Shown: piece after piece, positions 2,910 through 24,362 of the stretch | Layout: every line of letters begins with the position of its first letter | Position numbering within the stretch: the first letter of the stretch is position 1 | Assembly: GCA_025934395.1 (NCBI GenBank) | Contig: JAICYC010000021.1 | Coordinates: forward strand, 1 to 41,532 | Reading direction: 5' to 3' | Source of the DNA: Solirubrobacteraceae bacterium | Lineage (GTDB): Bacteria; Actinomycetota; Thermoleophilia; Solirubrobacterales; Solirubrobacteraceae | Length of the DNA stretch: 41,532 bases | The notes under the pieces: model-generated | Databases searched by the model: none | What the model was told of the DNA's origin: nothing | Seen by the model: only the letters and a program-made list of their open reading frames with translations | Position numbers and translations under genes: made by a program

Positions 2910-4313
2910 GTGGATCGGACCGTGCAGTCGATCCACCTTGAGAGTGCGCTCGTTGAGTTCCTGGAGGAGGCCGCTGCGATGCTGCATGCGGACGTGGCCG
3001 CGGGCAGCGAGGTGCCGTTCGAGGTGGAGACGACCGGGTCGCGGGCGGGTGGCGGGCGCCCCGCGCTCTACTGCTACCGCCCTCTGACCGCCGATTACAT
3101 CGCCGAGCGCCAGCCTGCGCTGCAACGACTGGAGAGCCACGACCGCGCGATCGAGCAGCTGCTCGGGTTCGACGGGCTCGACCGGTACCTGCTGGCAGCC
3201 GGGGTGGACACCGGGCGCGCGAGCCGACCGGCGCGTGCACGGATGGCGCTGCGGGCGCTGCTCGCCGAGGCCTGTGCGGACCAGAGCGACTTCGAGCTGC
3301 GCCCCGAGCGGGTGCGCGCTGCGGTGGCGCGCCTGGAGGCCTCAGCGGATGCGGATGCAGGCGGGGTGACGCTGATCGCCACGCTCCACGGCCTGACGAT
3401 CTCCTCCGAGCAGATCCAGCTCACGGGCGGCCTGTCGATCGCGCACCCGTCCGCGTTCGCGGGCCTCCCCGAAACGGCACGCGCCGCCTCCGACGGCGCC
3501 GCCGAGCACCTCCTGGCGGTGCTGGGCTCGCAGGACGTCGAGCCCGCGCATGCGATCGCGCAGGGCTGCGCCGTGATGCGGGACCTCGTGCGCGCCCTCC
3601 GGCTGTTCGGCGACGGACGCGTCGCGATCGGCGCGCTCGCGTGGGTTCGCGTGGGCACCGGATCGTGGACCCCGATACCGCTCGGGGCGAATGGGCGGCC
3701 CCACGGGGTGCTGCTCGTCATGCCCGAGCAGGAGGACGAGCTGCGCGCGTTCTGCAACCTCGTCTCGCGCCGCGCGCCGATCGACAACGAGATCGCGTGG
3801 GCGCTCCGCCGCTACGAGCTCGGCTGCGACCGCAGCGACCCGCTCGAGGCGCTCACTGACCACCTGGTCGCGCTGCGCGTGCTGCTGGAGCCGGAGGGGC
3901 CGCACAGCGCGATGCTCCCCGGCAGGCTCGCCGCGCTCTGCGCCACGCCCGAGGACTGCGTAGCCCTCACCGAGCGAGCGCTCGCGGCGATCGCCCTCGA
4001 GCGCGCCGCGATCGCCGGCAGGGCTGCGAGCGGCCCCGGCAACATTGCGCTCGCAGGCGAGATCGCCGACCATCTCCGCGCGCTCCTGCGCGACGTGATC
4101 TGCGGACACCTCGAGCCCGACCTGGTCACGCTCGCCGACGAGATCCTGCTCGAACGCGTCGAGCCCGCACCGGAAGCGGAGCCCGCGCAGTCCGCCCCTG
4201 CGCCCACCCGGGCCCGCGGGCATGCGGGCCCGCGCTTCACCCGCGGAGCGTCAACCGAGCAGGTGCTCGGCGACCCGCGAGAGGCCGAGGAGATCCTGGA
4301 CCTCTTCGTCTAG
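2910..4313 (+). CDS. Uncharacterised protein with possible HEPN (Apea-like) C-terminal domain
   Basis: About 467 residues, read from GTG 2910 (another GTG at 2922). Upstream the frame overlaps the HxlR gene and loses protein character. The N-terminal half is mixed alpha/beta (VQSIHLESALVEFLEEAAAM; LHGLTISSEQIQLTGGLSIA). The C-terminal half is helical: WALRRYELGC, LEALTDHLVALRVLLEP, LPGRLAALC, then IALERAAIAG and a final helix. This order resembles Apea-like HEPN domains (ARRF...D.L.D...ALE.LL...R.A.L...R..I.HG), but the usual R-x4-6-H is not seen. The last ~45 residues are Pro/Ala/Arg-rich, read through a terminator hairpin, and overlap the 3' end of the convergent ArsA gene by 63 bases. Function unknown. 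Confidence 0.7.
   Translation: MDRTVQSIHLESALVEFLEEAAAMLHADVAAGSEVPFEVETTGSRAGGGRPALYCYRPLTADYIAERQPALQRLESHDRAIEQLLGFDGLDRYLLAAGVDTGRASRPARARMALRALLAEACADQSDFELRPERVRAAVARLEASADADAGGVTLIATLHGLTISSEQIQLTGGLSIAHPSAFAGLPETARAASDGAAEHLLAVLGSQDVEPAHAIAQGCAVMRDLVRALRLFGDGRVAIGALAWVRVGTGSWTPIPLGANGRPHGVLLVMPEQEDELRAFCNLVSRRAPIDNEIAWALRRYELGCDRSDPLEALTDHLVALRVLLEPEGPHSAMLPGRLAALCATPEDCVALTERALAAIALERAAIAGRAASGPGNIALAGEIADHLRALLRDVICGHLEPDLVTLADEILLERVEPAPEAEPAQSAPAPTRARGHAGPRFTRGASTEQVLGDPREAEEILDLFV
4209..4232. terminator. Bidirectional terminator-type hairpin between convergent genes
   Basis: Perfect 9-bp stem CGGGCCCGC / GCGGGCCCG with a 6-base loop GGGCAT. It lies 18 bases past the ArsA stop (minus strand) and inside the 3' end of the plus-strand gene. 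There is no T-tract, as is usual for GC-rich actinobacteria. Confidence 0.55.
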
Positions 4314-5470: not shown

Positions 5471-6238
5471 GTGGACGGCAAGGCCAAGGTCATCGCGTTC
5501 GCCAACCAGAAGGGCGGGGTGGCCAAGACGACAACGACGCTCAACCTCGCCGCGGCCTTCGCGGAGGAGGGCCACCGCGTGCTGTGCGTGGACATGGACC
5601 CGCAGGGCAACCTGACCATGTCGCAGGGCATCGACCCCGACACGCTCGAACGCTCGATGTACGACGTGCTCGTGCACAAGGTGTCGATCCGCGAGGTGAT
5701 CCGCCGCCGCGAGATCGACGTCGCGTGCGCCTCGATCGACCTGGCGGGCGCCGAGATCGCGATGTCGACGATGATCGGCCGCGAGCGAACGCTGCAGAAG
5801 GCGTTCGAGGCGATCCTCGACGACTACGACTTCATCTGCATCGACACCCCGCCGAGCCTCGGCCTGCTGACGATCAACGCCCTCACCGCCGCCAACAAGG
5901 TGATCGTCCCCGTGCAGTGCGAGTATCTCTCGATGCGCGGGCTGATCCAGCTGCAGAACACCCTCGCGATGATCCGGGAAAACCTCAATCCGGACGTCGA
6001 CATCGAGGGTATCCTCCCCACGTTGGTCGACACGCGCACGATCCACGCCAAGGAGGCGATCGAGATCCTCGAGGAAAACTTCGGCGACCGCGTGTTCGCG
6101 TCCCGAATCCGCAAGACCGTCCGCTTCGCCGAGGCGCCCGTGAAGGGGATGTCGGTGCTCAAGTACGAGCCCGACGGGGTTGCGGCACAGTCCTACCGCC
6201 AACTCGCGCAGGAGGTATTGAGCCATGGACAACGCTAA
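5471..6238 (+). CDS. parA: ParA/Soj-family chromosome partitioning ATPase
   Basis: 255 residues from GTG 5471, chosen because GGAG lies six bases upstream and the family fold begins at once (KVIAFANQKGGVAKTTTTLN). The deviant Walker A KGGVAKTT is at 14-21 with the signature lysine. Walker A' is CVDMDPQGNLT and Walker B is FICIDTPPSLGLLT. RTIHAKEAIEIL and VKGMSVLKYEPDGVAAQSY match Soj-type ParA C-termini. Family members form DNA-bound dimers and move ParB-bound origins or other cargo. No parB is next door. Its last 14 bases overlap ftsZ, and the ftsZ ribosome binding site (AGGAGG, 6210-6215) lies inside it, so the two are translationally coupled. Confidence 0.93.
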   Translation: MDGKAKVIAFANQKGGVAKTTTTLNLAAAFAEEGHRVLCVDMDPQGNLTMSQGIDPDTLERSMYDVLVHKVSIREVIRRREIDVACASIDLAGAEIAMSTMIGRERTLQKAFEAILDDYDFICIDTPPSLGLLTINALTAANKVIVPVQCEYLSMRGLIQLQNTLAMIRENLNPDVDIEGILPTLVDTRTIHAKEAIEILEENFGDRVFASRIRKTVRFAEAPVKGMSVLKYEPDGVAAQSYRQLAQEVLSHGQR

Positions 6239-7691
6239 GCGCGCGAGCATGCGCGAAGGCCCGCTCGCGGCGCTCTTCCGCAAGACCGAAGAGGACGAGC
6301 AGGGCGGCGAGGCCGCCTCCGCGCCCGAGCAACCGCCGCGCAAGGCACGCGCGAAGACCCCCGCCCCGCCCGCGCATCCGCGCGAGACGGGCCTCCCGCA
6401 CCCTGCGCTGCGGGCCGAGGAGCAGGAGCTGCTCGCCGACGAGCCGCACGTGCCATCACCGCGCGAGCGCCTGCGCCACGCGTTCTCCTCCGAGATCCCC
6501 GAGAACCTGATGGACCGGAACGCGCCCGCCCCGCGCGAACCGCGTGAGATGTCGCTCGACCGGTACGCCGCGGAGCTGCGCGCAGACCGTCCCGCGCCCG
6601 AGCCCGGCCAGCCCGTGATCCGCGTCGTGGGCGTCGGCGGCGGCGGCGTGAACGCCGTCAACCGCATGGTCGAGGCCGAGGTCGAGGGGATCGAGTTCCT
6701 CGCCGTCAACACCGACGTGCAGTCGCTGCAGCAGTCCACCGCCGACATCACGCTGCACATCGGCGCCGAGCTCACACGCGGGCTCGGATCGGGCTCCGAC
6801 GCGAACGTCGGGCGCCAGGCCGCGATGGAAGACTACGACCGGATGAAGGCCCTGCTGAAGGGGTCCGACATGATCTTCATCACCGCCGGCGCTGGCGGCG
6901 GCACCGGCACCGGCGCCGCCCCGATCGTTGCGCGCATCGCGCGCGAAGTGGGGGCGCTCACCGTCGCGATCGTCACGAAGCCGTTCGGCTTCGAGGGCAG
7001 CCGTCGCAGCGGGCAGGCCGAGCATGGCGTCGCCGCGCTCGCCGACGAGGTCGACACGCTGATCGTCGTCCCCAACAACCGCCTGCTCGACGTGCTCGAC
7101 AAGCAGACCGCGATGGTGGAGGCGTTCCGCGTCGCCGACGACGTGCTGCGCCAGGGCGTCCAGGGGATCTCCGACCTCGTCACGCTCCCCGGCCTCATCA
7201 ACCTCGACTTCGCCGACGTGCGCACGATCATGAGCTCCGCCGGAGCTGCGCTCCTCGGGATCGGCATGGGCGTGGGCGAGAACCGCGCCACCGAGGCTGC
7301 CATGCAGGCCGTCTCCTCGCCGCTGCTCGAAACCTCGATGGACGGCGCGCGCTCGATCCTGCTCTCGATCACCGGCGGCGAGAACCTCTCCCTGTGGGAG
7401 GTCAACGAGGCCGCCAAGTCCGTGTCCGCTGCAGCCCATCCCGACGCCAACATCATCTTCGGCGCGATGGTCGACGAGAAGCTCGACGACCAGGTATGGG
7501 TGACCGTCGTCGCCACCGGCTACGGCGACGAGGGCCGGCGCAAGAGCGTCGAGCGCTACCGCGAGCCCGCCGGCGAGGTGCGCGTGCAGCGAACCAGCGC
7601 CACGACAAGCGGCGGCGGTGAGCGTGTCGGGCGGCGCAGCCGCGCGCTGGACGACCTGGACATCCCAGAGTTCATCCCTGACGCGCGATAG
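6225..7691 (+). CDS. ftsZ: Cell division protein FtsZ with long N-terminal extension
   Basis: 488 residues; the tubulin-like GTPase forms the cytokinetic ring. The conserved core begins near residue 131 (VIRVVGVGGGGVNAVNRM). The tubulin signature AGAGGGTGTGAAPIVA is at 221-236 and the T7 catalytic loop NLDFADV at 326-332. The C-terminal partner-binding peptide DDLDIPEFI is at 476-484. Residues 1-130 are an unusual charged, Pro/Ala-rich extension with two better-ordered patches (MREGPLAALFRKTEED; SLDRYAAELRADRP). The final PDAR and the stop codon are encoded by the dispersed palindromic repeat starting at 7677. The gene overlaps parA by 14 bases, a position outside any mur/fts cluster, so a second FtsZ elsewhere in the genome is possible. 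Confidence 0.96.
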   Translation: MDNAKRASMREGPLAALFRKTEEDEQGGEAASAPEQPPRKARAKTPAPPAHPRETGLPHPALRAEEQELLADEPHVPSPRERLRHAFSSEIPENLMDRNAPAPREPREMSLDRYAAELRADRPAPEPGQPVIRVVGVGGGGVNAVNRMVEAEVEGIEFLAVNTDVQSLQQSTADITLHIGAELTRGLGSGSDANVGRQAAMEDYDRMKALLKGSDMIFITAGAGGGTGTGAAPIVARIAREVGALTVAIVTKPFGFEGSRRSGQAEHGVAALADEVDTLIVVPNNRLLDVLDKQTAMVEAFRVADDVLRQGVQGISDLVTLPGLINLDFADVRTIMSSAGAALLGIGMGVGENRATEAAMQAVSSPLLETSMDGARSILLSITGGENLSLWEVNEAAKSVSAAAHPDANIIFGAMVDEKLDDQVWVTVVATGYGDEGRRKSVERYREPAGEVRVQRTSATTSGGGERVGRRSRALDDLDIPEFIPDAR

Positions 7692-10864: not shown

Positions 10865-11782
10865 TCAGGCGGGCTTCTGCGCCGCGATCATCAGGTTGTA
10901 GAAGATCGCAGCCGGCAAGCGTGACTCGAGCAGCCGCCGGTCGAGCTGCTGGAGCATCAGGTAGCCCCGGTAGGCGTACATCTTCCATGCCCACGGCACC
11001 TCTTCGGGGTCCGCGGTCGCCTCGAGCGTGCGGTTGGTCCAGCCGAACCAGTTCGCGAGCAGCTCCTCGCCGCTGACGCGAACCGAGCGAAAGCCCGCGG
11101 CCCGCGCCAATCGCGCGAGCTCCGACGGCGCGAACGCGTGCACGTCCACGACGCCCTCGAGCGCTTCGTCGTCGTCGTCGCTGCTGTGCGCCCGCGCAGC
11201 GCTCGCGCGCAGCGCCGCCCGCCACAGCGGCGCGATCGTCCGTGCGAACCGCTTCGGCACGGTCGCCAGGCGGTCGCCGTAGCGCGAGGGCTCGCCCGCG
11301 AACAGCAGCGTGCCGCCGGGCGCGAGCACGCGCGCGAACTCCGAGAAGGCGAGCTCGAGGTGGGGGATGTGGTGCAGCACCGCGTGCCCGAGCACGAGGT
11401 CGAAGCTCCCATCGGCGAACGGCAGGCGCTCGGCGTCGGCGGGCGTGGTCGTCACCTCCAGCCCGAGGCGCGAGGCGTTCTCCGTGAGCGTGCTGAGCAT
11501 CCCCGGCGAGATGTCGCTGCATGTGGCCTCGCCGATCAGGCCCGCCTGCATCAGGTTGAGCGTGAAGTAGCCCGTCCCCGAGCCGATCTCCAGCGAGCGC
11601 TCGAAGCGTGGCGGCTCCCCGCGCAGCGCCTTGCGCACCTTCGTGGTGACCTGCTCCTGGCCCATCGCGCCGAAGTCGATGCCCCACTTGGAGTCGTAGT
11701 GGACCGCCGCCACGTCGTGGTAGCGCGCGTTGGCGTCGCGGATCTGCTCTGCGCTGATGGCTGGCGCCACGGGCCGCACCAT
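10865..11782 (-). CDS. SAM-dependent methyltransferase, MGLP-locus type (Rv3037c-like)
   Basis: 305 residues, class I methyltransferase. SAM motif I is SLEIGSGTGYFTLNLMQAG, motif II region CSDISPGMLSTLTENA, then ADAERLPFADGSFDLVLGHA and LHHIPHLELAFSEFARVLAPGG. The start region HYDSKWGIDFGAMGQ and the C-terminal part (LLANWFGWTNRTLEA; FYNLMIAAQKP) remind me strongly of the mycobacterial Rv3037c family, which maps in the 6-O-methylglucose lipopolysaccharide gene region. That similarity is from memory. It diverges from an Rv3030-like methyltransferase. A TATA-containing sequence abuts the ATG; GTG at codon 5 is an alternative leaderless start. Predicted role: O-methylation of a polysaccharide or its precursor. 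Confidence 0.85.
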   Translation of the reverse strand: MVRPVAPAISAEQIRDANARYHDVAAVHYDSKWGIDFGAMGQEQVTTKVRKALRGEPPRFERSLEIGSGTGYFTLNLMQAGLIGEATCSDISPGMLSTLTENASRLGLEVTTTPADAERLPFADGSFDLVLGHAVLHHIPHLELAFSEFARVLAPGGTLLFAGEPSRYGDRLATVPKRFARTIAPLWRAALRASAARAHSSDDDDEALEGVVDVHAFAPSELARLARAAGFRSVRVSGEELLANWFGWTNRTLEATADPEEVPWAWKMYAYRGYLMLQQLDRRLLESRLPAAIFYNLMIAAQKPA

Positions 11783-11787
11783 ATACT
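11782..11787 (+). promoter_or_regulatory. -10 box for the plus-strand methyltransferase
   Basis: TATACT (5 of 6 to TATAAT) lies in the 50-base divergent intergenic region. It would start transcription about 40 bases before the GTG at 11833. The same AT-rich spot on the other strand reads TATATG at the start of the minus-strand gene, so this is probably a compact divergent promoter. Confidence 0.4.
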
Positions 11788-11832
11788 CGCGCCCCCGAGC
11801 GCGCCCCCAGGCGAGCGCGCGGGGATCCAGCC

Positions 11833-12606
11833 GTGACCGACACCCTCTACGTCCAGCGCGACCAGCCGAGCGGGGTGCCCCCGCTGGAGCTCACCGGCGA
11901 GCGCACGCTGCCGGACGTCCCGGCCGAGAACTACTGGTACCGCCGACACCTGGTCGTCTACGAGTGGATCGCCCAGCGCGTGCGGGGCATGCGGGTGATC
12001 GACATGGCATGCGGGGAGGGCTACGGCTCCGCGGTGCTCGCGCGCACCGCCGCGAGCGTGGTGGGCGTGGACGCCAACCCGGAGGCGCACGAGCACGCGC
12101 GGCTGCGCTACCGCGCCTCGAACCTCCGTTACGAGCGCGCTCTTGTTGAAACCTACGGCGAGCCCGCCGACAGCGTGGTGTTCCTGCAGACGATCGAGCA
12201 CGTCCAGGACGCGGGCGCGGTGCTCGGCCACTTCCGCAAGCTGCTGGAGGGCGCGGGGACCGTGTTCGTCTCCACGCCCAACGTCCTCACGCTCGCTCCC
12301 GAGGGAGCGGAGCGCTCGGACAACCCGTGGCACGTGCACGAGTACCGCCACCGCGAGTTCGAGGAGCTGTGCGCGAGGAGCTTCGCGCGGGTCGAGATGT
12401 ACGGGCTGTTCCACGCGCGCAAGCTGCGCGTGCACGAGCTCGCGCTGCGCGCAGGCTGGGACGCGATCCACAGCCGGCTGTCGCTCACAGGCGCCTTCTA
12501 CGACCGCTTCACGCCGGCGATCAGCACGTCCGACTTCGTGCTGCGCCCCGCCGCGCGCGCCAACATGGACGCGGCGCTCGACTTCCTCGCCGTATGCCGT
12601 CCGTGA
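11833..12606 (+). CDS. SAM-dependent methyltransferase, Rv3030-like
   Basis: 257 residues from GTG 11833. The N-terminal block LELTGERTLPDVPAENYWYR and RRHLVVYEWIAQRV is, from memory, the hallmark of mycobacterial Rv3030 and its actinobacterial relatives. SAM motif I is VIDMACGEGYGSAVLA, the acidic residue sits in VVGVDANPEAHEHARLRY, and the post-I region is VFLQTIEHVQDAGAVLGHF. Its stop overlaps the following GH57 gene (a GTG or upstream ATG start), exactly as Rv3030 precedes Rv3031. Predicted to methylate sugar units of an intracellular polymethylated glucan. The substrate is inferred from context, not from the sequence. Confidence 0.88.
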   Translation: MTDTLYVQRDQPSGVPPLELTGERTLPDVPAENYWYRRHLVVYEWIAQRVRGMRVIDMACGEGYGSAVLARTAASVVGVDANPEAHEHARLRYRASNLRYERALVETYGEPADSVVFLQTIEHVQDAGAVLGHFRKLLEGAGTVFVSTPNVLTLAPEGAERSDNPWHVHEYRHREFEELCARSFARVEMYGLFHARKLRVHELALRAGWDAIHSRLSLTGAFYDRFTPAISTSDFVLRPAARANMDAALDFLAVCRP

Positions 12607-14045
12607 GCGGCCGCGACCGCGGCGCGCTGGCGATCGTCCTCCACACCCACATGCCCTACGTCGAGGGCTTCGGCACCTGGCCGTTCGGCGAGGAGTGGCT
12701 GTGGGAGGCGATCGCATGCTGCTACCTGCCGCTGCTCGCGCTGCTCGACGAGGGTGCGCCGCTGACGCTGTCGCTCACGCCGGTGCTGTGCGACCAGCTC
12801 GAGGTGGAGGGGATCGGCGAGCGGTTCGCAGCGTTCGTGCGAGATGTGCGCCGCGCCACCCACGCCGACGACGCGGCGGGGCTGCGCGAGGGCGGGCACG
12901 GGCGCCTAGCCGCCGAGCTAGATCGCGCCGCGGCGGACTACGAGCACGCGCTGGAGAGGGTGCAGGACCTCGGCGGCGACCTGCTCGGCGCGCTCGCGCC
13001 GCACGCGCAGTGGACGTCGGCGGCAACGCACGCGGTGCTGCCGCTGCTGGCCTCCGAGGCGTGCCTGCGGCTGCAGCTGCGCACCGGGATCGAGTCGCAC
13101 CGGCGCCGCTTCGGCGATTGGGGCGGCGGTTTCTGGCTGCCGGAGTGCGGATACGAGCCCGCGCTCGCGCACGGCCTCGCCGACGCCGGTGTGCGCGCGG
13201 CCTGCGTGGAGCTGACCGGACGCGAGCCGCTCGGCTCGAGCGCGCACCTCGCACCCCTGCGCGACGAGTCGGGCGTCACGCTCGTGCCGATCGACCGCGC
13301 GACGATGTCGCTCGTGTGGAGCGACGGGGGCTATCCCGCAGCGGGCGCCTACCGCGACTACCACCACCACACCGTCCATCACCACAACCCGTGGGCGAAC
13401 TCGGGCGAGGCCTACGACCACGCCGCTGCGCTGGCGCTCGCGCGCGAGCACGCAGCGGACTTCGTCGCACGCACGCGCACGCGGCTCGCCGACGCGCAGG
13501 GCAGCGGAGCGGGTGCGCTGCCCGGCGGAGGCCTCGTGGTGTGCGCGCTCGACACCGAGCTGCTCGGCCACTGGTGGTACGAGGGCGGGGAATGGCTGCG
13601 CGCGGTGGTGCGCGAGTGCGAGGAGCAGGGCCTCGCGCTGGTGCGGCTCGACGACGCGCTCGCGGAGATCGAGCCGCTGCCGGCGTCCGGGCGCGAGCGT
13701 GCGCTCGCGTGGCCGCCCACCACCTGGGGCCGCGCGGGCGACCTCTCGACCTGGTCGGGGCCCGCGGTCGCCGACATGGCGTTCGCCGCGCGAGAGGACG
13801 AGCTCGCGGTGCTCGCCGCGGGCCACGCCGCCGGCGATGCGGCGGTGCGCGAGCTGCTCGCGCTGCAGGCGAGCGACTGGCCGTTCATGGTCTCCCGCGA
13901 GATCGCGGTGCCTTACGCGCGCGAGCGCTTCGCGGGCCACCGCGCCGCGCTGCAGGCGGCGCTGCACGCCGGTCCGCGGGCCGGCACGAGCGCGCTCGGC
14001 AACCTCGCCGCCGACGCGCACACGGCCACGCTGCTCGCCGCCTGA
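12594..14045 (+). CDS. GH57 1,4-alpha-glucan branching enzyme (Rv3031-like)
   Basis: 483 residues. GH57 motif 1 is HTHMPYV near residue 17. The catalytic nucleophile is Glu184 in GFWLPECGYEP and the general acid Asp320 in VVCALDTELLGHWW. Family members cleave an alpha-1,4 bond and reattach the chain through alpha-1,6. The C-terminal helical part (LALQASDWPFMVSREIA) is typical of GH57 branching enzymes. An unusual His-rich loop, DYHHHTVHHHNPW, lies at 255-267. The ATG at 12594 is used; GTG 12603 would give the familiar GTGA overlap with the methyltransferase. The stop is one base from the stop of the convergent acyltransferase. Predicted to shape the glucan backbone that the flanking enzymes methylate and acylate. 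Confidence 0.92.
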   Translation: MPSVSGRDRGALAIVLHTHMPYVEGFGTWPFGEEWLWEAIACCYLPLLALLDEGAPLTLSLTPVLCDQLEVEGIGERFAAFVRDVRRATHADDAAGLREGGHGRLAAELDRAAADYEHALERVQDLGGDLLGALAPHAQWTSAATHAVLPLLASEACLRLQLRTGIESHRRRFGDWGGGFWLPECGYEPALAHGLADAGVRAACVELTGREPLGSSAHLAPLRDESGVTLVPIDRATMSLVWSDGGYPAAGAYRDYHHHTVHHHNPWANSGEAYDHAAALALAREHAADFVARTRTRLADAQGSGAGALPGGGLVVCALDTELLGHWWYEGGEWLRAVVRECEEQGLALVRLDDALAEIEPLPASGRERALAWPPTTWGRAGDLSTWSGPAVADMAFAAREDELAVLAAGHAAGDAAVRELLALQASDWPFMVSREIAVPYARERFAGHRAALQAALHAGPRAGTSALGNLAADAHTATLLAA

Positions 14046-14046
14046 G

Positions 14047-14736
14047 CTACTCCCAGCGCATCTGTCGCGGTCTGTCGCGCATCCGGATCACGCGCGCGGG
14101 CACGCCGCCGAGCACGGTGTCTGCGCGAAACGAGCGCGTCACCACCGCGCTCGTACCGATCACGGAGTTGTTTCCCACCGCCGCGCCCCGCAGGATGCAC
14201 GCGCCGTAGCCGATCCACACGTTGTGCCCGATCTTCACGTTGCGCTTGTAGATGCCCTGCAGACGGATCGGGCGCTCCACCTCGGTCACGCCGTGGTCGA
14301 AGTCGATCAGCATCACGCGGTCGGCGATGATGCACTCGCGTCCGATCTCGACGCGCTGGTAGGCGGAGATGGTGCACTCCTGGCCGATCACCGTCTTCGC
14401 GCCGATGCTCACCTCGCCCTCGTGGACGCGCACCTTGCAGCCGTGCCCGAGCCACGCCCAGCGGCCGATCCGCAGCGTTGCGTCCGGCCCGATCTCGAGC
14501 TGGACGCCGGGGCAGATGAAGCAGAGCCCGTCGGTCTGCAGGCGCCCGCGGAAGCGCAGCTTCAGCACGGCCAGGCGGGCGAGCAGCCGTGCGTAGCGGG
14601 TGTTGAGCATCCCGTGCGCGCTCATGAAGCGCAGCAGCGCGAGCGGGCCGCCGCGGGGGGGAGCGGGCGGCGGGCGCAGGCCGTCGCGGAAGGTCGCCTC
14701 GCGCCCCACGGTGCTCCGGTCGGTCAGCAGCTCCAT
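14047..14736 (-). CDS. Left-handed beta-helix (hexapeptide) acyltransferase
   Basis: 229 residues. After a Pro-rich start comes a helical lead-in (LLRFMSAHGMLNTRYARL), then many hexapeptide rungs: LEIGPDATLRIG, VSIGAKTVIGQECTIS, VEIGRECIIADRVMLIDFDH and VKIGHNVWIGYGACILRG, ending GGVPARVIRMRDRPRQMRWE. The loop with IDFDHG supplies the catalytic His of the O-acetyltransferase family. It sits tail-to-tail with the branching enzyme. Together with the two methyltransferases, it matches the acyltransferase (Rv3034c type) of the mycobacterial MGLP locus; that match is recalled, not computed. The -10 box TACGAT lies nine bases before the ATG. Confidence 0.85.
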   Translation of the reverse strand: MELLTDRSTVGREATFRDGLRPPPAPPRGGPLALLRFMSAHGMLNTRYARLLARLAVLKLRFRGRLQTDGLCFICPGVQLEIGPDATLRIGRWAWLGHGCKVRVHEGEVSIGAKTVIGQECTISAYQRVEIGRECIIADRVMLIDFDHGVTEVERPIRLQGIYKRNVKIGHNVWIGYGACILRGAAVGNNSVIGTSAVVTRSFRADTVLGGVPARVIRMRDRPRQMRWE

Positions 14737-16639: not shown

Positions 16640-17791
16640 TCACGCTCCGAGCGCGCGCGCGATCACCATCTGCTGCACCTCGTCGGTTCCCTCGCCGATC
16701 GTGAGGATCTTCGCGTCGCGGTAGAACCGGCACACGGGGTACTCCTCGATGAAGCCGTAGCCGCCGTGGATCTGCACCGCCTCCTCGCTGCAGCGCACCG
16801 CGAGACGCCCCGTCTTGAGCTTCGCCTGCGCGGCGGTCAGCGTGAAGTTGCGCCCCGCGTCCTTCTCCAGCGCGGCCTTGTGCACCAGCAGCCGCGCCGC
16901 TGCGATCTCTGTGGCCATGTCGGCGAGCTTGCCCTGGATCGCCTGGAACTTCGAGATCGGCTTGCCGAACGCGCGGCGCTCCTTTGCGTACTTCAGCGCC
17001 TCGTCGAGCGCGCCCTGGGCGAGCCCCACGCCCATCGCCGCCACGCCGATCCGGCCGATGTCGAGGATGTGCAGGAACTGGCGGAAGCCGGCGCCCCGCG
17101 GACCGAGCAGGTTCTCCTCGGGGACCGTGCAGTGCTCGAAGGTGAGCGGGCGCGTGTCGGACGCGTTCCAGCCCATCTTGCGATAGGGCTCGCCCTGCTC
17201 GTAGCCCGGGGTGCCGTTGGGGACGAGGATGTTCGAGATCTCCTTGCCGCCGTCGGCGGCCTCTGCGCCCGTCACCGCCGTGATCGCAACGACCCCCGAG
17301 ATGTCGGTGCCCGCGTTGGTGATGAACTGCTTCGCGCCGTTGATCGTCCAGGCGCCGTCGCGGAGCTCCGCGCGCGTGCGCGTGTTGCCCGCGTCAGAGC
17401 CGGCCTCGGGCTCGGTCAGCCCGAACGCTCCGAGCACCTCGCCGGAGCACAGCCGCGGGAGCCACTCGCGCTTCTGCTCCTCGCTGCCGAACAGGTAGAT
17501 CGGCTGGGTGCCCAGCGACGTGTGCGCGCACAGCGTGATCGCAACGGAGGAGTCCACGCGCGTGAGCTCCTCCACGGCGAGCGCGTACGCGAGCGTGTCG
17601 CCGCCCCCGCCGCCGTACTCCTCGGGGAACGGGATCCCCATCAGGTTGAGCTCTCCGAGCTTCGCCACGATCTCGTAGGGGAACGCCTTGCGGCGGTCGA
17701 GCTCCTCGGCCACAGGCGCGACCTCCCCCTCCGCGAAGTCGCGGACCGTGCGCCGGATCAGCTCGTGGTCTGGGGAGAGCTCGAAGTCCAC
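16640..17791 (-). CDS. Acyl-CoA dehydrogenase
   Basis: 383 residues from GTG 17791 (VDFELSPDHELIRRTVRDFA), the usual family start. An ATG at 17812 would add seven residues and overlap the aminopeptidase stop. It is a flavoprotein catalysing alpha,beta-dehydrogenation of acyl-CoA, with electrons passed to ETF. Signatures are FGLTEPEAGSD (first PROSITE-type motif), SVAITLCAHTSLGTQPI, QIHGGYGFIEEYPVCRFYRD and the catalytic base Glu367 in IGEGTDEVQQMV, the position used by short/medium-chain enzymes. It follows pepA on the same strand. EtfB, EtfA and ETF-QO, its predicted electron acceptors, are at 22.6-26.2 kb. Substrate chain length cannot be read from the sequence. Confidence 0.94.
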   Translation of the reverse strand: MDFELSPDHELIRRTVRDFAEGEVAPVAEELDRRKAFPYEIVAKLGELNLMGIPFPEEYGGGGGDTLAYALAVEELTRVDSSVAITLCAHTSLGTQPIYLFGSEEQKREWLPRLCSGEVLGAFGLTEPEAGSDAGNTRTRAELRDGAWTINGAKQFITNAGTDISGVVAITAVTGAEAADGGKEISNILVPNGTPGYEQGEPYRKMGWNASDTRPLTFEHCTVPEENLLGPRGAGFRQFLHILDIGRIGVAAMGVGLAQGALDEALKYAKERRAFGKPISKFQAIQGKLADMATEIAAARLLVHKAALEKDAGRNFTLTAAQAKLKTGRLAVRCSEEAVQIHGGYGFIEEYPVCRFYRDAKILTIGEGTDEVQQMVIARALGA

Positions 17792-20615: not shown

Positions 20616-20619
<4 letters not shown>

Positions 20620-21470
20620 GCGCGGCGGGCGCGTCGAGCAACGGGTCCGCCCCGCACGCGCCGGACGGCGCCGCCCGGGGCGCCGCGTTCTTCGACCTCG
20701 ACAAGACGCTGATGGCCGGGTCGTCGGGGATCTTCTTCGCGCGCGCGGCCTACGAGAGCGGCATGATCAGCCGCCGCCGTCTGGCGCGCGACGCCTACGA
20801 GAACTTCCGGTTCCGCCTCCTGGGCTCGACCGACGATCGCGCCGACGACGTGCGCAAGCGGGTGGGGCAGATGATCGCGGGCGTGCGGGTGCGCGACCTC
20901 GAGCGGCTCTCGCCGCGCGTGCTCGCAGGCGTGCTACCGCGCCTGTACCCGGAGATGCTCGACCGCGCCTACGCCCACCAGGACGAGGGCATGCCCGTCT
21001 ACATCCTCACCGCCGCCTCGCAGGAGATGGCCGATCTGCTCGCACGCGTGCTCGCCTTCGACGGCGGTATCGGCTCGCGCTCGGAGATCGTCGACGGCCG
21101 CTACACGGGGCGCCCGGCGGGACCGTTCAACTACCGCGAGGGCAAGGTGCTCGCGATGGCGGAGGTGGCCGAGCGCGACGGCATCGACCTGGCCGTCTCG
21201 TGCGCGTACTCGGACTCGGAGTCAGACCTGCCGATGCTGCGCGCGGTGGGCCACGCGGTGGTGGTCAACCCCGACACCGCGCTGCGGCGGATCGCGCTGC
21301 AGGAGGGGTGGGAGATCCTCGAGCTCGACCAGCTCGCGCGACGGCTGAAGCTGCTCGCCCTCGGCGGCGCGGCGGTTGCGGCGGCGGCGCTCGCGCCCGC
21401 ACCCGCACGGCAGCGCGTCCGCGGGCTGGGGCGGCCGCGGCGGGGCGCCGGCGCCGGGGGAGGCGCGTGA
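20616..21470 (+). CDS. HAD-IB family phosphatase (SerB-like)
   Basis: 284 residues from GTG 20616, overlapping the thiolase stop by four bases (GTGA). HAD motif I is AAFFDLDKTLMAGSS, with nucleophile Asp27 and acid Asp29. Motif II is VYILTAASQEM (Thr/Ser) and motif III/IV AYSDSESDLPMLRAVGHAV. The helical cap around residues 45-115 (FRFRLLGSTDDRADDVRKR) fits the IB subclass found in phosphoserine phosphatase relatives. A hydrophobic C-terminal helix (LLALGGAAVAAAALAPAP) may anchor it at the membrane. In actinobacteria such proteins often accompany lipid acyltransferases. The substrate is unknown; a phosphorylated lipid or sugar is inference. Confidence 0.88.
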
Positions 21471-21994
21471 TCGCGCCCGCCTACCGGCGCCAGCTCGGGC
21501 GGCTGATGGGCCGGCTCGCGTTCCGCAAGCTGCTCGGTCAGCGGCTGCGGTGCGCGGCGTGGCGCGCGCTCGGCGCGCGCATCGAGGACAACGTCAAGAT
21601 CGGCGCGCGGGTGTGGATCCGCTGGCCCGCCAACGTCAGCATCGGCTCGGGCACCAAGCTCGGCGGGCGCATCTGGCTGGACGCAGGCGGCGGCATCGAG
21701 ATCGGGCGCAACGCGCTGATCACCGACGAATGCTCGGTGCTCTCGGTCGAGCACGACCTCGACAGCCCGCGCTTCCAGATGGAGCGCTCGAAGGTGCGGA
21801 TCGGCGACTACACGTGGCTTCCCTACCGGGTGATCGTGATGCCGGGGACGACGATCGGCGACTACGCCGTGGTCGGCTCGGGCAGCGTGGTGACGGGCGA
21901 GGTCGCGCCCTACGCGGTGGTGGCGGGCAACCCCGCGCGCGAGATCCGCAAGCGCGCGGACGTGCCTTACCACTACGTGCCCAGCACCATGTGA
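21467..21994 (+). CDS. Hexapeptide-repeat acyltransferase (WcaF/LacA type)
   Basis: 175 residues from GTG 21467, overlapping the HAD gene stop by four bases, with GGGGGAGG just upstream as ribosome binding site. The N-terminal helix LMGRLAFRKLLGQRLRCAAW is followed by beta-helix rungs: VKIGARVWIRWPANVSIGSG, IEIGRNALITDECSVLSVEH (catalytic His), VRIGDYTWLPYRVIVMPG, TIGDYAVVGSGSVVTGEVAP and VVAGNPAREI, the classic ending of CoA-dependent sugar O-acetyltransferases. The acceptor is unknown. It is unrelated in detail to the acyltransferase at 14047, which is longer and has a different N-terminus. Confidence 0.88.
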   Translation: MIAPAYRRQLGRLMGRLAFRKLLGQRLRCAAWRALGARIEDNVKIGARVWIRWPANVSIGSGTKLGGRIWLDAGGGIEIGRNALITDECSVLSVEHDLDSPRFQMERSKVRIGDYTWLPYRVIVMPGTTIGDYAVVGSGSVVTGEVAPYAVVAGNPAREIRKRADVPYHYVPSTM

Positions 21995-22573: not shown

Positions 22574-23365
22574 ATGAAGATATGCGTCCTCGTCAAGGAG
22601 GTTCCGGACGCCGCCGTCGAGAAGAGGATCGACACCTCGACGGGGCGCATGGACCGTAGCGGCGAGAAGAACCTGAACCCCTACGACACGCACGCGATCG
22701 AGGCCGCGATGCAGATCAAAGAGGGCGGCGCCGTGCCCGTCGAGGAGGTCGTCGCGGTCACGATGGGCCCCGAGAGCGCCGTGCGCGCGCTGCACAAGGC
22801 CGTCTCGCTCGGCGCGGACCGCTCCGTGCACCTCAGCGACCCCGCCGTGGCGGGCTCCGACGTGGCAGCCACGGGCTACGCGCTCGCCAAGACGCTGCAG
22901 AAGGAGAGCCCCGACCTGGTGCTGCTCGGCCAGCAGTCAGACGACGGCGAGTGCTACACGATCGGCGCGGTCGTGGCCGAGCACCTCGGCATGCCCTCGC
23001 TCACCCAGGTGATCAAGATGGACGTGGAGGGCGAGGCGCTGCGCTGTGAGCGCCAGGCCGAGTACGGGTACGACACCGTGCAGGTGAAGCTGCCCGCCGT
23101 GATCTCCGTCGGCGACGCGATCAACGAGCCGCGCTACCCCTCGCTGAAGGCGATCATGGGCGCCAAGAAGAAGCCGCTGGAGACGGTCACCACGGGCGAC
23201 GTTCAGATCGACGCGAGCAAAGTGGGCGGCGAGAACTCCGCCGCGCAGTGGGTCGCCGCCAAGGCGCCCCCCGCGAAGGCCGCCGGCGAGATCATCGAGG
23301 ACGAGGACACCGGGGAAACGGTCGAAAAAATCGTCAGCTGGCTCGACGAGCGCAAGCTCATCTAA
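22574..23365 (+). CDS. etfB: Electron transfer flavoprotein beta subunit
   Basis: 263 residues. The start MKICVLVKEVPDAAVEKRID follows AAGGAG. The AMP-binding ETF beta fold is clear: NPYDTHAIEAAMQI, VVAVTMGPESAVRALHKAVS (family signature region), LVLLGQQSDDGECYTIGAVV and the docking segment LPAVISVGDAINEPRYPSLKAIMGAKKKP. With EtfA it takes electrons from acyl-CoA dehydrogenases and hands them to ETF-QO. The C-terminal tail (IIEDEDTGETVEKIVSWLDE) is typical of actinobacterial members. It is followed 16 bases later by etfA, with AAGGAGG between them at the end of this gene. Confidence 0.96.
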   Translation: MKICVLVKEVPDAAVEKRIDTSTGRMDRSGEKNLNPYDTHAIEAAMQIKEGGAVPVEEVVAVTMGPESAVRALHKAVSLGADRSVHLSDPAVAGSDVAATGYALAKTLQKESPDLVLLGQQSDDGECYTIGAVVAEHLGMPSLTQVIKMDVEGEALRCERQAEYGYDTVQVKLPAVISVGDAINEPRYPSLKAIMGAKKKPLETVTTGDVQIDASKVGGENSAAQWVAAKAPPAKAAGEIIEDEDTGETVEKIVSWLDERKLI

Positions 23366-23381
23366 GGAGGAGCCCACCGAA

Positions 23382-24362
23382 ATGTCCAACATCCTGGTCT
23401 ACGCGCTGCACTACGACGGCGCGATCAACAAGAACTCGCTGGGCGCGGTCTCCGAGGGCGCGAAGCTCGCCGCCGAGCTGGGCGGCGAGGCCCACGCGCT
23501 CCTGCTCGGCGAGAACGTCCCGCAGGACGTGGCCGCCTCGCTCGGCAGATACGGCGCCAAGAAGGTGCTGATCGCGGAGGGCCCCGAGGGGCTCGCCCAG
23601 CCGCTCGTCGACGCGATGGCGAAGGCGATCACCGACGGCGGCTACAAGTACGCGCTGTTCGGCGGCGGCCTGCTCGGGTTCGAGATCGGCGCGGGCCTGG
23701 CGGCTCGCCTCGGCGCGGGCGTGGCGATGGAGGTCACCGCGGTGCGCGCCGAGGGTGGCGAGCTCGTCGCCGAGCGCCCGATCCTGGGTGACTCGGCGAT
23801 CTCCGAGATCAAATACCGCTCGCCCGTCGGGATCATCATCGGGCGACTGAACGCGTTCGAGGCGAAGGACACCGGCGGCGCGGACGCCCCGGTCGAGCAG
23901 CTCAGCTTCGAGCTCTCGGCGCACTCGACGCAGGCGACGATGGTCACGCGCGGCGAACAGCGCGGCGCGGACGTCGACATCGAGGGCGCCGACATCCTCG
24001 TCGCGGGCGGTCGCGGCCTCGGCAAGGCCGAGGGCTTCGAGCTCTGCGAGCAGCTCGCGGCGGCGTTCGGCGGCAACAGCGCCGTGGCGGCGACGCGCGC
24101 GGTGGTCGACGCGGGCTGGTACCCCTACGCGGCGCAGATCGGTCAGACCGGCAAGACGGTCGCGCCGAAGCTGTACCTCGCAGCGGGCATCTCCGGCGCG
24201 ATCCAGCACAAGGTGGGTATGCAGAGCTCCGAGAACATCGTGGCGATCAACAAGGACGCGAACGCCCCGATCTTCGAGTTCTCCGACCTCGGTGTGGTCG
24301 GCGACCTGAACAAGATCCTGCCCAAGCTGACCGAAGCGGTGAAGGCCAAGAAGGGGAGCTGA
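23382..24362 (+). CDS. etfA: Electron transfer flavoprotein alpha subunit
   Basis: 326 residues. The N-terminal domain begins [20 protein letters not shown]. The C-terminal FAD domain carries [42 protein letters not shown] and the signature [21 protein letters not shown], followed by [23 protein letters not shown]. All expected FAD contacts of the family are present and the length is normal. It is the second gene of the etfB-etfA-ETF-QO operon; AAGGAGG lies directly upstream. It forms a heterodimer with EtfB in the cytoplasm. Confidence 0.96.

What the first reader, a model, noticed from the sequence alone, without database searches (positions are those of the whole stretch)
10865..14736. A compact MGLP-like locus outside the mycobacteria
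Four contiguous genes resemble, by recalled sequence signatures, members of the M. tuberculosis 6-O-methylglucose lipopolysaccharide region: the minus-strand methyltransferase (Rv3037c type), the plus-strand methyltransferase with LTGERTLPD...ENYWYRR (Rv3030 type), the GH57 branching enzyme (Rv3031) and a hexapeptide acyltransferase (Rv3034c type). The two central genes are fused by overlap as in mycobacteria. The partner glycosyltransferase (Rv3032) is missing here. This suggests a polymethylated, acylated intracellular glucan in a deep-branching actinobacterium.
Basis: partly seen in the sequence, partly recalled or inferred. Interest (0 to 1): 0.72.

Follow-up and report, generated by a model that had tools for sequence, protein, structure and literature searches.

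The report
Methylated-glucan gene cluster outside mycobacteria
A soil-type actinobacterium only distantly related to the tuberculosis bacillus carries the same core set of genes that mycobacteria use to build an unusual methylated and acylated sugar polymer, which suggests that this polymer, or a simpler form of it, is older and more widespread than mycobacteria.

Summary
The nearest named loci are mostly Solirubrobacterales. Each gene has its counterpart in the mycobacterial 6-O-methylglucose lipopolysaccharide (MGLP) cluster, compared through an unnamed mycobacterial-type genome, G074. The set is not peculiar to this genome. The Rv3030-type methyltransferase lies beside GH57 in 18 of the 19 best other loci. 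The Rv3037c-type methyltransferase and Rv3034c-type acyltransferase track it across 80 genomes: 31/35 versus 2/45 and 32/35 versus 2/45. The 'missing' Rv3032-type glycosyltransferase is on another contig of the same genome, in one clade with copies lying close behind GH57 in 38 of 62 named loci. A GpgS-type synthase is present, but it is nearer to a mannosyl enzyme and is common in genomes without the cluster. The octanoyltransferase OctT was not found. Best reading: an old actinobacterial pathway for an O-methylated, O-acylated alpha-glucan, related to MGLP but without octanoyl priming. No chemistry was tested. The central genes overlap by 13 nt and are not fused.

The parts
10865..11782 (-). 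class I SAM-dependent methyltransferase, Rv3037c type (305 aa)
   Evidence: 39-41% identical to the best hits in four f29 (mycobacterial-type) genomes; 455 bits to profile A3, which includes it, and the only match in its genome at E<=1e-20; AlphaFold model pLDDT 92, top Foldseek hit 6uv6 AtmM, named D-glucose O-methyltransferase
11833..12606 (+). SAM-dependent methyltransferase, Rv3030 type (257 aa), invariant LTGERT and ENYW motifs
   Evidence: 36% identical to the G074 row; GH57 adjacent in 18 of the 19 best other loci
12594..14045 (+). GH57 alpha-glucan branching-enzyme-like protein, Rv3031 type (483 aa); E184 and D320 in place, appears to lack the tyrosine-tipped loop
   Evidence: 33% identical to the G074 protein; overlaps the preceding gene by 13 nt
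14047..14736 (-). left-handed beta-helix (hexapeptide) O-acyltransferase, Rv3034c type (229 aa), invariant DFDH motif
   Evidence: best hits in 8 of 8 other genomes lie on the contig of the Rv3030-type gene; 305 bits to profile A4, which includes it, versus 110 for the next match in its genome
14832..15815 (+). MeaB-type GTPase; context gene (propionyl/methylmalonyl-CoA metabolism)
   Evidence: Pfam MeaB 293 bits; downstream of the cluster in many of the named loci
16640..17791 (-). acyl-CoA dehydrogenase; context gene, with reciprocal-best counterparts near the cluster in 5 other loci
   Evidence: Pfam; (cluster 7: L024, L025, L026, L028, L033, window)
22574..24362 (+). EtfB and EtfA; context genes, with counterparts beside the Rv3030-type gene in three f29 loci and one f15 locus
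   Evidence: Pfam; (clusters 11 and 12: L035, L039, L040, L041, window)

Best explanation
The locus is the Solirubrobacterales version of an old actinobacterial gene set for an O-methylated, O-acylated alpha-glucan, homologous to the mycobacterial MGLP cluster. Proposed working: a GT4 glucosyltransferase of Rv3032 type, encoded elsewhere in this genome, extends an alpha-1,4-glucan chain. The GH57 enzyme, with both catalytic carboxylates but apparently no branching loop, trims, transfers or branches it. The Rv3030-type enzyme methylates glucose units (6-O, by analogy with mycobacteria). The Rv3037c-type enzyme adds a second kind of methyl group, perhaps the chain-end cap. The hexapeptide transferase esterifies the chain with short acyl groups from acyl-CoA. 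Priming may use a glycosyl-glycerate made by a GT81-type synthase on another contig, but the octanoyl step of mycobacteria is missing. Shown: the genes, their orthology, synteny, co-occurrence and key residues. Inferred: every reaction, the order of steps and the product.
For: Orthology: window MT(-) has its best hit within 14 kb of the Rv3030-type gene in 7 of 8 other genomes that I chose (the eighth, G096, is on another contig), at 200-233 bits against at most 129 for the runner-up. The acyltransferase has its best hit on the same contig as that gene in 8 of 8, at 103-144 bits against at most 46. Synteny: MT3030-GH57 adjacent in 18 of 19 loci. In 80 named loci, counting those with room: GH57 adjacent 61 of 72, MT(-) divergent and adjacent 61 of 76, acyltransferase(-) downstream 43 of 46, GT4 close downstream 38 of 62. 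GT4 in trans in the own genome, 411 bits against 110 for the next, in one 45-row clade (100/100) with the cis copies. In G055 GH57 and GT4 lie together on another contig. Co-occurrence (35 genomes with MT3030 at >=80 bits against 45 without): MT(-) 31 and 2; GT4 27 and 3; acyltransferase 32 and 2; leaving out genomes used to build the profiles 21/25, 17/25 and 22/25. Gene distances correlate, r 0.82-0.90. GH57 E184 and D320 align with identical residues of Thermus 3p0b (catalytic role recalled).
Against: No chemistry; the paper listings seen show no methylated glucan from this order. OctT was not found. The GpgS-type gene is nearer to the mannosyl enzyme 3f1y (249 bits) than to glucosyl ones (187-197 bits); two cluster-bearing relatives (G121, G055) have no GpgS above the cut-off; and GpgS is no more than weakly associated with the cluster. 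Five otherwise positive genomes (G129, G140, G118, G097, G085) have no GT4 match at E<=1e-70. In the GT4 tree the join of mycobacterial-type and other copies against the outgroup has only 96/71 support, with long branches. The cluster is patchy: none of 9 sampled genomes of the same class outside the order has a strong MT3030. Sampled genomes are related, so the Fisher values are not independent tests. Class I methyltransferase and hexapeptide folds do not show the substrate.
Confidence: 0.7

Rival explanations
1. The GH57 and GT4 genes make or remodel an ordinary glycogen-like glucan, and the two methyltransferases and the acyltransferase modify something else (a lipid, a quinone precursor or a cell-surface glycan) and are only neighbours.
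For: Pfam and NCBIfam call the methyltransferases only generic class I enzymes. The nearest folds of the (+) methyltransferase include BioC, UbiG and small-molecule enzymes. Five positive genomes lack the GT4 at threshold. In G055 the GH57-GT4 pair is on a different contig from the methyltransferases.
Against: The methyltransferases and the acyltransferase co-occur and stay together with GH57 across many families, distances correlate, and in mycobacteria the counterparts are linked to a methylated, acylated glucan (PMC4555173 passages; PMC2674218 first part; PMC4995917 passage).
Confidence: 0.15
2. The locus makes a polymethylated polysaccharide of another type, for example primed by mannosylglycerate or with mannose in the chain, closer in spirit to the methylmannose polysaccharides.
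For: The own-genome synthase is closest to a mannosyl-3-phosphoglycerate synthase (3f1y), and GpgS is only weakly associated with the cluster. A methylmannose polysaccharide is reported from Streptomyces griseus and mycobacteria (PMC9883506 passages).
Against: The GT4 groups with the Rv3032-type copies, though at 96/71 against the outgroup, and GH57 matches alpha-glucan enzymes. PMC9883506 (passage) reports only 28-33% identity between ManT and Rv3032/Rv1212c. I did not search for the methylmannose gene cluster.
Confidence: 0.1
3. The organism makes true MGLP, with glucosylglycerate at the reducing end and an unrelated enzyme doing the octanoylation. This is a special case of the best explanation and does not exclude it.
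For: A GpgS-family gene above the NCBIfam cut-off overlapping by 4 nt a HAD phosphatase ORF. The GT4 gene overlaps an acyl-CoA ligase gene, so acyl-CoA supply is plausible.
Against: OctT not found, and the synthase looks mannosyl-like. The phosphatase reaches no NCBIfam cut-off, only a general HAD family of Pfam.
Confidence: 0.15

Closest known systems
Mycobacterial MGLP cluster Rv3030-Rv3037c
   Same: Counterparts of both methyltransferases, the GH57 protein and the acetyltransferase-like gene. Rv3030-type and GH57 genes adjacent on one strand, the acyltransferase and the second methyltransferase on the other. The Rv3032-type gene is in the genome.
   Different: The GT4 gene is in trans, the second methyltransferase lies upstream and divergent instead of downstream, identities to G074 are only 33-40%, and OctT was not found.
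Clusters of the same genes in unnamed actinobacterial families f20 and f26
   Same: All five genes in one stretch in 5 loci (L025, L026, L028, L029, L032).
   Different: They also hold a GalT-like gene between GT4 and the acyltransferase (Pfam), and keep GT4 in place.
GH57 glycogen branching enzymes (T. thermophilus 3p0b, T. maritima AmyC 2b5d; species recalled)
   Same: Sequence family and both aligned carboxylates.
   Different: 483 aa, and appears to lack the tyrosine-tipped loop; PMC10346327 (passages) puts loop-less enzymes in the 92% group, whose tested member had the highest alpha-1,4-transglycosylation.
Rv3032 pathway as surveyed for bacterial energy reserves (PMC6686919, passages)
   Same: Rv3032 homologues and GH57 were both counted across bacteria; Rv3032 was reported as more widespread than GlgA.
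   Different: In the passages I read, enzymes were counted by domain models; the methyltransferases, the acyltransferase and gene order are not treated.

Membership tests
MGLP biosynthesis (mycobacterial type) | Rv3030-type methyltransferase | tested here: met
   no H37Rv sequence of it was available, the comparison is with mycobacterial-type G074
MGLP biosynthesis (mycobacterial type) | Rv3031-type GH57 beside it | tested here: met
MGLP biosynthesis (mycobacterial type) | Rv3032-type GT4 in the cluster | tested here: not met
   not in the cluster; present in trans at G000:C5:6215-7426
MGLP biosynthesis (mycobacterial type) | Rv3034c-type acyltransferase | tested here: met
MGLP biosynthesis (mycobacterial type) | Rv3037c-type methyltransferase | tested here: met
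MGLP biosynthesis (mycobacterial type) | GpgS (glucosyl-3-phosphoglycerate synthase) | tested here: inconclusive
   318.6 bits over a cut-off of 262, but the closest solved structure is a mannosyl-3-phosphoglycerate synthase
MGLP biosynthesis (mycobacterial type) | GpgP of mycobacterial (Rv2419c) type | not tested
   only the RsfS neighbourhood of the own genome was read, where none was called; a HAD phosphatase ORF overlaps the synthase
MGLP biosynthesis (mycobacterial type) | OctT (Rv2418c) | tested here: not met
   no match at E<=1e-3 in G000, G100, G121 or G055; strong only in 4 of 34 genomes, all family f29. The own genome is 91% complete, so absence is not proven
MGLP biosynthesis (mycobacterial type) | product: 6-O-methylglucose glucan with octanoyl-glycerate end | not testable with these tools
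   needs chemistry
Canonical GH57 branching enzyme | catalytic Glu and Asp | tested here: met
   E184 and D320 aligned with 3p0b and kept in the aligned cluster proteins shown; catalytic role recalled
Canonical GH57 branching enzyme | flexible loop with conserved Tyr | tested here: not met
   gap at that place in the pairwise alignment with 3p0b (loop position from recall), short in 18 of 19 cluster GH57 proteins; PMC10346327 passages

The most novel reading that the evidence does not exclude
An O-methylated, O-acylated cytoplasmic alpha-glucan is an ancestral trait of a large part of the Actinomycetota, and mycobacterial MGLP is a late elaboration of it that gained octanoyl priming. The polymer's first role would then predate mycolic-acid metabolism. 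Gene context with acyl-CoA dehydrogenase, B12-mutase, MeaB and Etf genes hints that it handles short acyl-CoAs.
Probability: 0.45. Interest if true: 0.75.

Novelty: new variant of a known kind. Interest (0 to 1): 0.6.

Why it matters
MGLPs are described as a product of mycobacteria (PMC2674218) and a few Nocardia strains (PMC4555173), and their role is still unclear. [quoted passage not shown] The biochemistry could be worked out in harmless cultured soil bacteria, and steps whose enzymes are assigned only by context (Rv3031, Rv3034c, Rv3037c) could be tested on distant counterparts. The set also separates into a co-inherited core (two methyltransferases, GH57, GT4, acyltransferase) and parts that do not follow it closely (GpgS, OctT).

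Tried and rejected
Rejected: 'fusion' of the two central genes (a 13-nt overlap). Rejected: 'Rv3032 missing from the organism'. Rejected as a marker: GpgS; 22 of 34 with and 37 of 80 without, Fisher p = 0.10. In that comparison G033 stood among the 80 'without', and the 80 also hold G024 and G052 (see below). Structure prediction of the two methyltransferases gave class I-like models. The (-) enzyme's top Foldseek hits include AtmM and RebM, which I recall as O-methyltransferases of glucose-bearing natural products, but TM-scores are about 0.45-0.6 and many N-methyltransferases score alike, so this is a hint only. The (+) enzyme gave an uninformative list. Profile searches of solved structures found only other methyltransferases for both families.

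Known weaknesses: the 'EtfB' and 'EtfA' query labels were shifted by one gene (they are the B12-binding protein and EtfB); I draw nothing from those columns. The gene finder is home-made and mis-called some genes (for example an antisense ORF over GpgS in L057, put right, and wrong ORFs over the cluster genes of L064, L069 and L075). The co-occurrence thresholds (80, 300 and 190 bits, and E<=1e-70 for GT4) were set after seeing scores. Two of the 45 'without' genomes (G024, G052) have the other three genes, so they probably bear the cluster with a lost, divergent or unassembled MT3030. Of the 35 'with', G033 and G103 have none of the others, so their MT hits (101 and 81 bits) are probably paralogues; G064 is 62% complete; G129 shows only a fragment of MT(-). 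The 45 'without' genomes were the first 45 in handle order of those below 80 bits, not a random draw; the GpgS comparison used the first 80 of 115. The 80 named loci are the best 80 of at least 566 confirmed, so all are close relatives. The genomes were chosen by me among positives.
Full report
What is there. The window is the whole of contig C7 of a 3.0-Mb, 151-contig assembly that is 91% complete. Four genes stand at the stated places: MT(-) 10865-11782, MT(+) 11833-12606, GH57(+) 12594-14045 and hexapeptide transferase(-) 14047-14736. Pfam gives methyltransferase, methyltransferase, Glyco_hydro_57 plus BE_C, and Hexapep. None of the NCBIfam matches shown reaches its curated cut-off (the best 25 are shown for two of the proteins). 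The named loci most similar to the (+) methyltransferase are mostly titled Solirubrobacterales or other Thermoleophilia. A few titles there (Chlamydiae, Bifidobacterium breve, Dormiibacterota) look like labelling errors.

Are they the MGLP genes? Its locus L035 shows, in order, counterparts of mnmA and iscS, further genes, etfA and etfB, then MT, GH57, GT4 and hexapeptide transferase (Pfam support for the mnmA and iscS families). In G074 GpgS lies near genes that look like glgM and glgC, and rsfS is followed by a histidine phosphatase and a GDSL-type gene taken as GpgP and OctT. The Rv names are put on by gene order from recall; PMC2674218 (first of three parts read) and PMC4995917 (one passage) give the content of Rv3030-Rv3037c. 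The window MT(-) has its best hit within 14 kb of the Rv3030-type gene in 7 of 8 other genomes, at 200-233 bits; the runner-up reaches at most 129. In G096 the hit is on another contig. The acyltransferase has its best hit on the same contig in 8 of 8, at 103-144 bits against at most 46. Identities to G074 are 40% for MT(-) and 33% for the acyltransferase, 36% for the (+) methyltransferase and 33% for GH57.

It is not a local oddity. The (+) methyltransferase reaches 80 bits in 35 of 149 sampled genomes of the phylum, the own genome included. In the 19 highest-scoring loci besides the own genome, GH57 is adjacent in 18. In longer stretches of 20 genomes, 10 show MT-GH57-GT4 in a row and one more (L038) shows it with a small predicted ORF between. 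Five loci of families f20 and f26 hold MT, GH57, GT4, a GalT-like gene, acyltransferase and the second MT together. In the 80 named loci, counting only those with enough sequence, GH57 is adjacent in 61 of 72, MT(-) is divergent and adjacent in 61 of 76, the acyltransferase lies downstream on the minus strand in 43 of 46, and GT4 lies close downstream in 38 of 62.

The missing glycosyltransferase. A profile of ten cluster GT4 proteins finds one outstanding match in the window's genome, G000:C5:6215-7426(-), at 411 bits against 110 for the next. In a maximum-likelihood tree it falls, with the trans copies of G100 and G121 and the G055 copy, in one clade with the in-cluster copies of named Solirubrobacterales (45 rows, support 100/100). 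So the gene most likely left the cluster and was not lost. The deeper join with the mycobacterial-type copies has 96/71 support, and the program warns of long branches. In G055 the GH57 and GT4 genes sit together on another contig, away from the methyltransferases. In the window's genome GT4 overlaps by 4 nt a fatty-acyl-CoA ligase gene, and in G121 it follows three genes with alpha-amylase (GH13) domains.

Co-occurrence. Among 80 genomes, 35 with a (+) methyltransferase at or above 80 bits and 45 without, the Rv3037c-type enzyme at or above 300 bits is in 31 and 2, GT4 at E<=1e-70 in 27 and 3, and the acyltransferase at or above 190 bits in 32 and 2. Each profile was built from sequences of ten of these genomes; without those the counts are 21/25, 17/25 and 22/25. 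The genomes are related, so these are not independent trials. GpgS behaves differently: over its cut-off in 22 of 34 and 37 of 80 (p = 0.10). OctT is strong in only 4 of 34, all family f29, with weak relatives in five more. Pairwise distances in the five gene trees correlate at r 0.82 to 0.90, though shared ancestry of the hosts alone would give part of that. The cluster is patchy: 4 of 4 sampled genomes of the same family or order (own included) but 0 of 9 other genomes of the class have a strong match. Five positive genomes (G129, G140, G118, G097, G085) show no GT4 at threshold.

How it may work. In GH57 two carboxylates align with identical residues of 3p0b (E184 in WLPEC, D320 in LDTEL), while the stretch that holds the tyrosine-tipped loop in 3p0b is mostly gapped (residue roles and loop position recalled). 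Among 19 aligned cluster GH57 proteins one, L040, has a longer insert there, and the others are short. PMC10346327 (abstract and passages) reports that loop-less enzymes are the 92% majority and that the one tested had the highest alpha-1,4-transglycosylation. PMC4555173 (passages) states that Rv3032 and Rv3030 have genetic support in MGLP extension and 6-O-methylation, and that Rv3031 and Rv3034c are assigned by context. I therefore propose a GT4-built alpha-glucan, remodelled by GH57, methylated by two enzymes and esterified by the hexapeptide transferase. PMC2674218 (first part) gives acetate, propionate and isobutyrate as non-reducing-end acyl groups in MGLP. Acyl-CoA dehydrogenase, B12-binding mutase subunit and Etf genes stand near the cluster here and, some of them, in distant families, which would suit short acyl-CoA donors but may be chance.

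Priming is the weak point. The genome has a gene above the GpgS cut-off (318.6 bits against 262), overlapping by 4 nt a HAD phosphatase ORF. Its closest solved structure is a mannosyl-3-phosphoglycerate synthase, 3f1y, at 249 bits, against 187-197 for the glucosyl enzymes and unnamed chains below it. Relatives G121 and G055 have the cluster methyltransferases but no GpgS over the cut-off. OctT was not found in a 91%-complete assembly. So this works like MGLP synthesis, but it fails one tested membership feature (OctT) and another only in its place (GT4 in trans); I do not call the product MGLP.

Literature. Searches for the Rv numbers and MGLP terms, alone or with Nocardia, actinobacteria, Thermoleophilia, Solirubrobacter, Rubrobacter and Streptomyces, listed no paper whose title or shown abstract describes the cluster outside mycobacteria and their relatives; for only the top 10-20 of 76, 175 and 2,437 papers were listed. 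PMC9041414 (one passage) looked for the Rv3032/Rv3031 pathway in the genus Defluviicoccus and did not find it, citing a 2011 review that I did not see. PMC6686919 (passages) already reports that Rv3032 homologues are widespread. PMC3089613 (passages) treats Rv3031 only within mycobacterial envelope genes. Prior notice of the wider distribution is therefore possible.

Verdict. Observation confirmed; interpretation right in kind and too narrow in scope. A known kind of pathway in a variant form, with a good case for an old actinobacterial origin.

Noticed in passing
window 5471-7691: A ParA-like ATPase gene overlaps by 14 nt an FtsZ-family gene with about 130 residues before the tubulin domain; the FtsZ-like gene lies upstream of the cluster in many of the named loci.
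   Followed up: partly
window 20616-21994: A HAD hydrolase gene overlaps by 4 nt a second hexapeptide transferase gene of 175 aa, a distant relative of the cluster acyltransferase.
   Followed up: no
window 2910-4313: A 467-aa ORF with a good coding score and no Pfam match at E<=0.001.
   Followed up: no
L171:4557-7426: In the window's own genome the relocated GT4 gene overlaps by 4 nt a fatty-acyl-CoA ligase gene, suggesting a sugar-acyl operon.
   Followed up: partly
L121:10795-12004: The GH57 gene beside an intact GT4 was called as two pieces of 197 and 162 aa: a frameshift, an assembly error or a decaying gene.
   Followed up: no
L067, L120, L130: Contigs titled Chlamydiae, Dormiibacterota and Bifidobacterium breve carry Solirubrobacterales-like versions of the cluster genes, so the record titles are probably wrong.
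   Followed up: no
L025, L026, L028, L029, L032, L034: A GalT-like gene (Pfam GalP_UDP_transf, tested in L025) belongs to the cluster in families f20 and f26; its part in the pathway is unknown.
   Followed up: no
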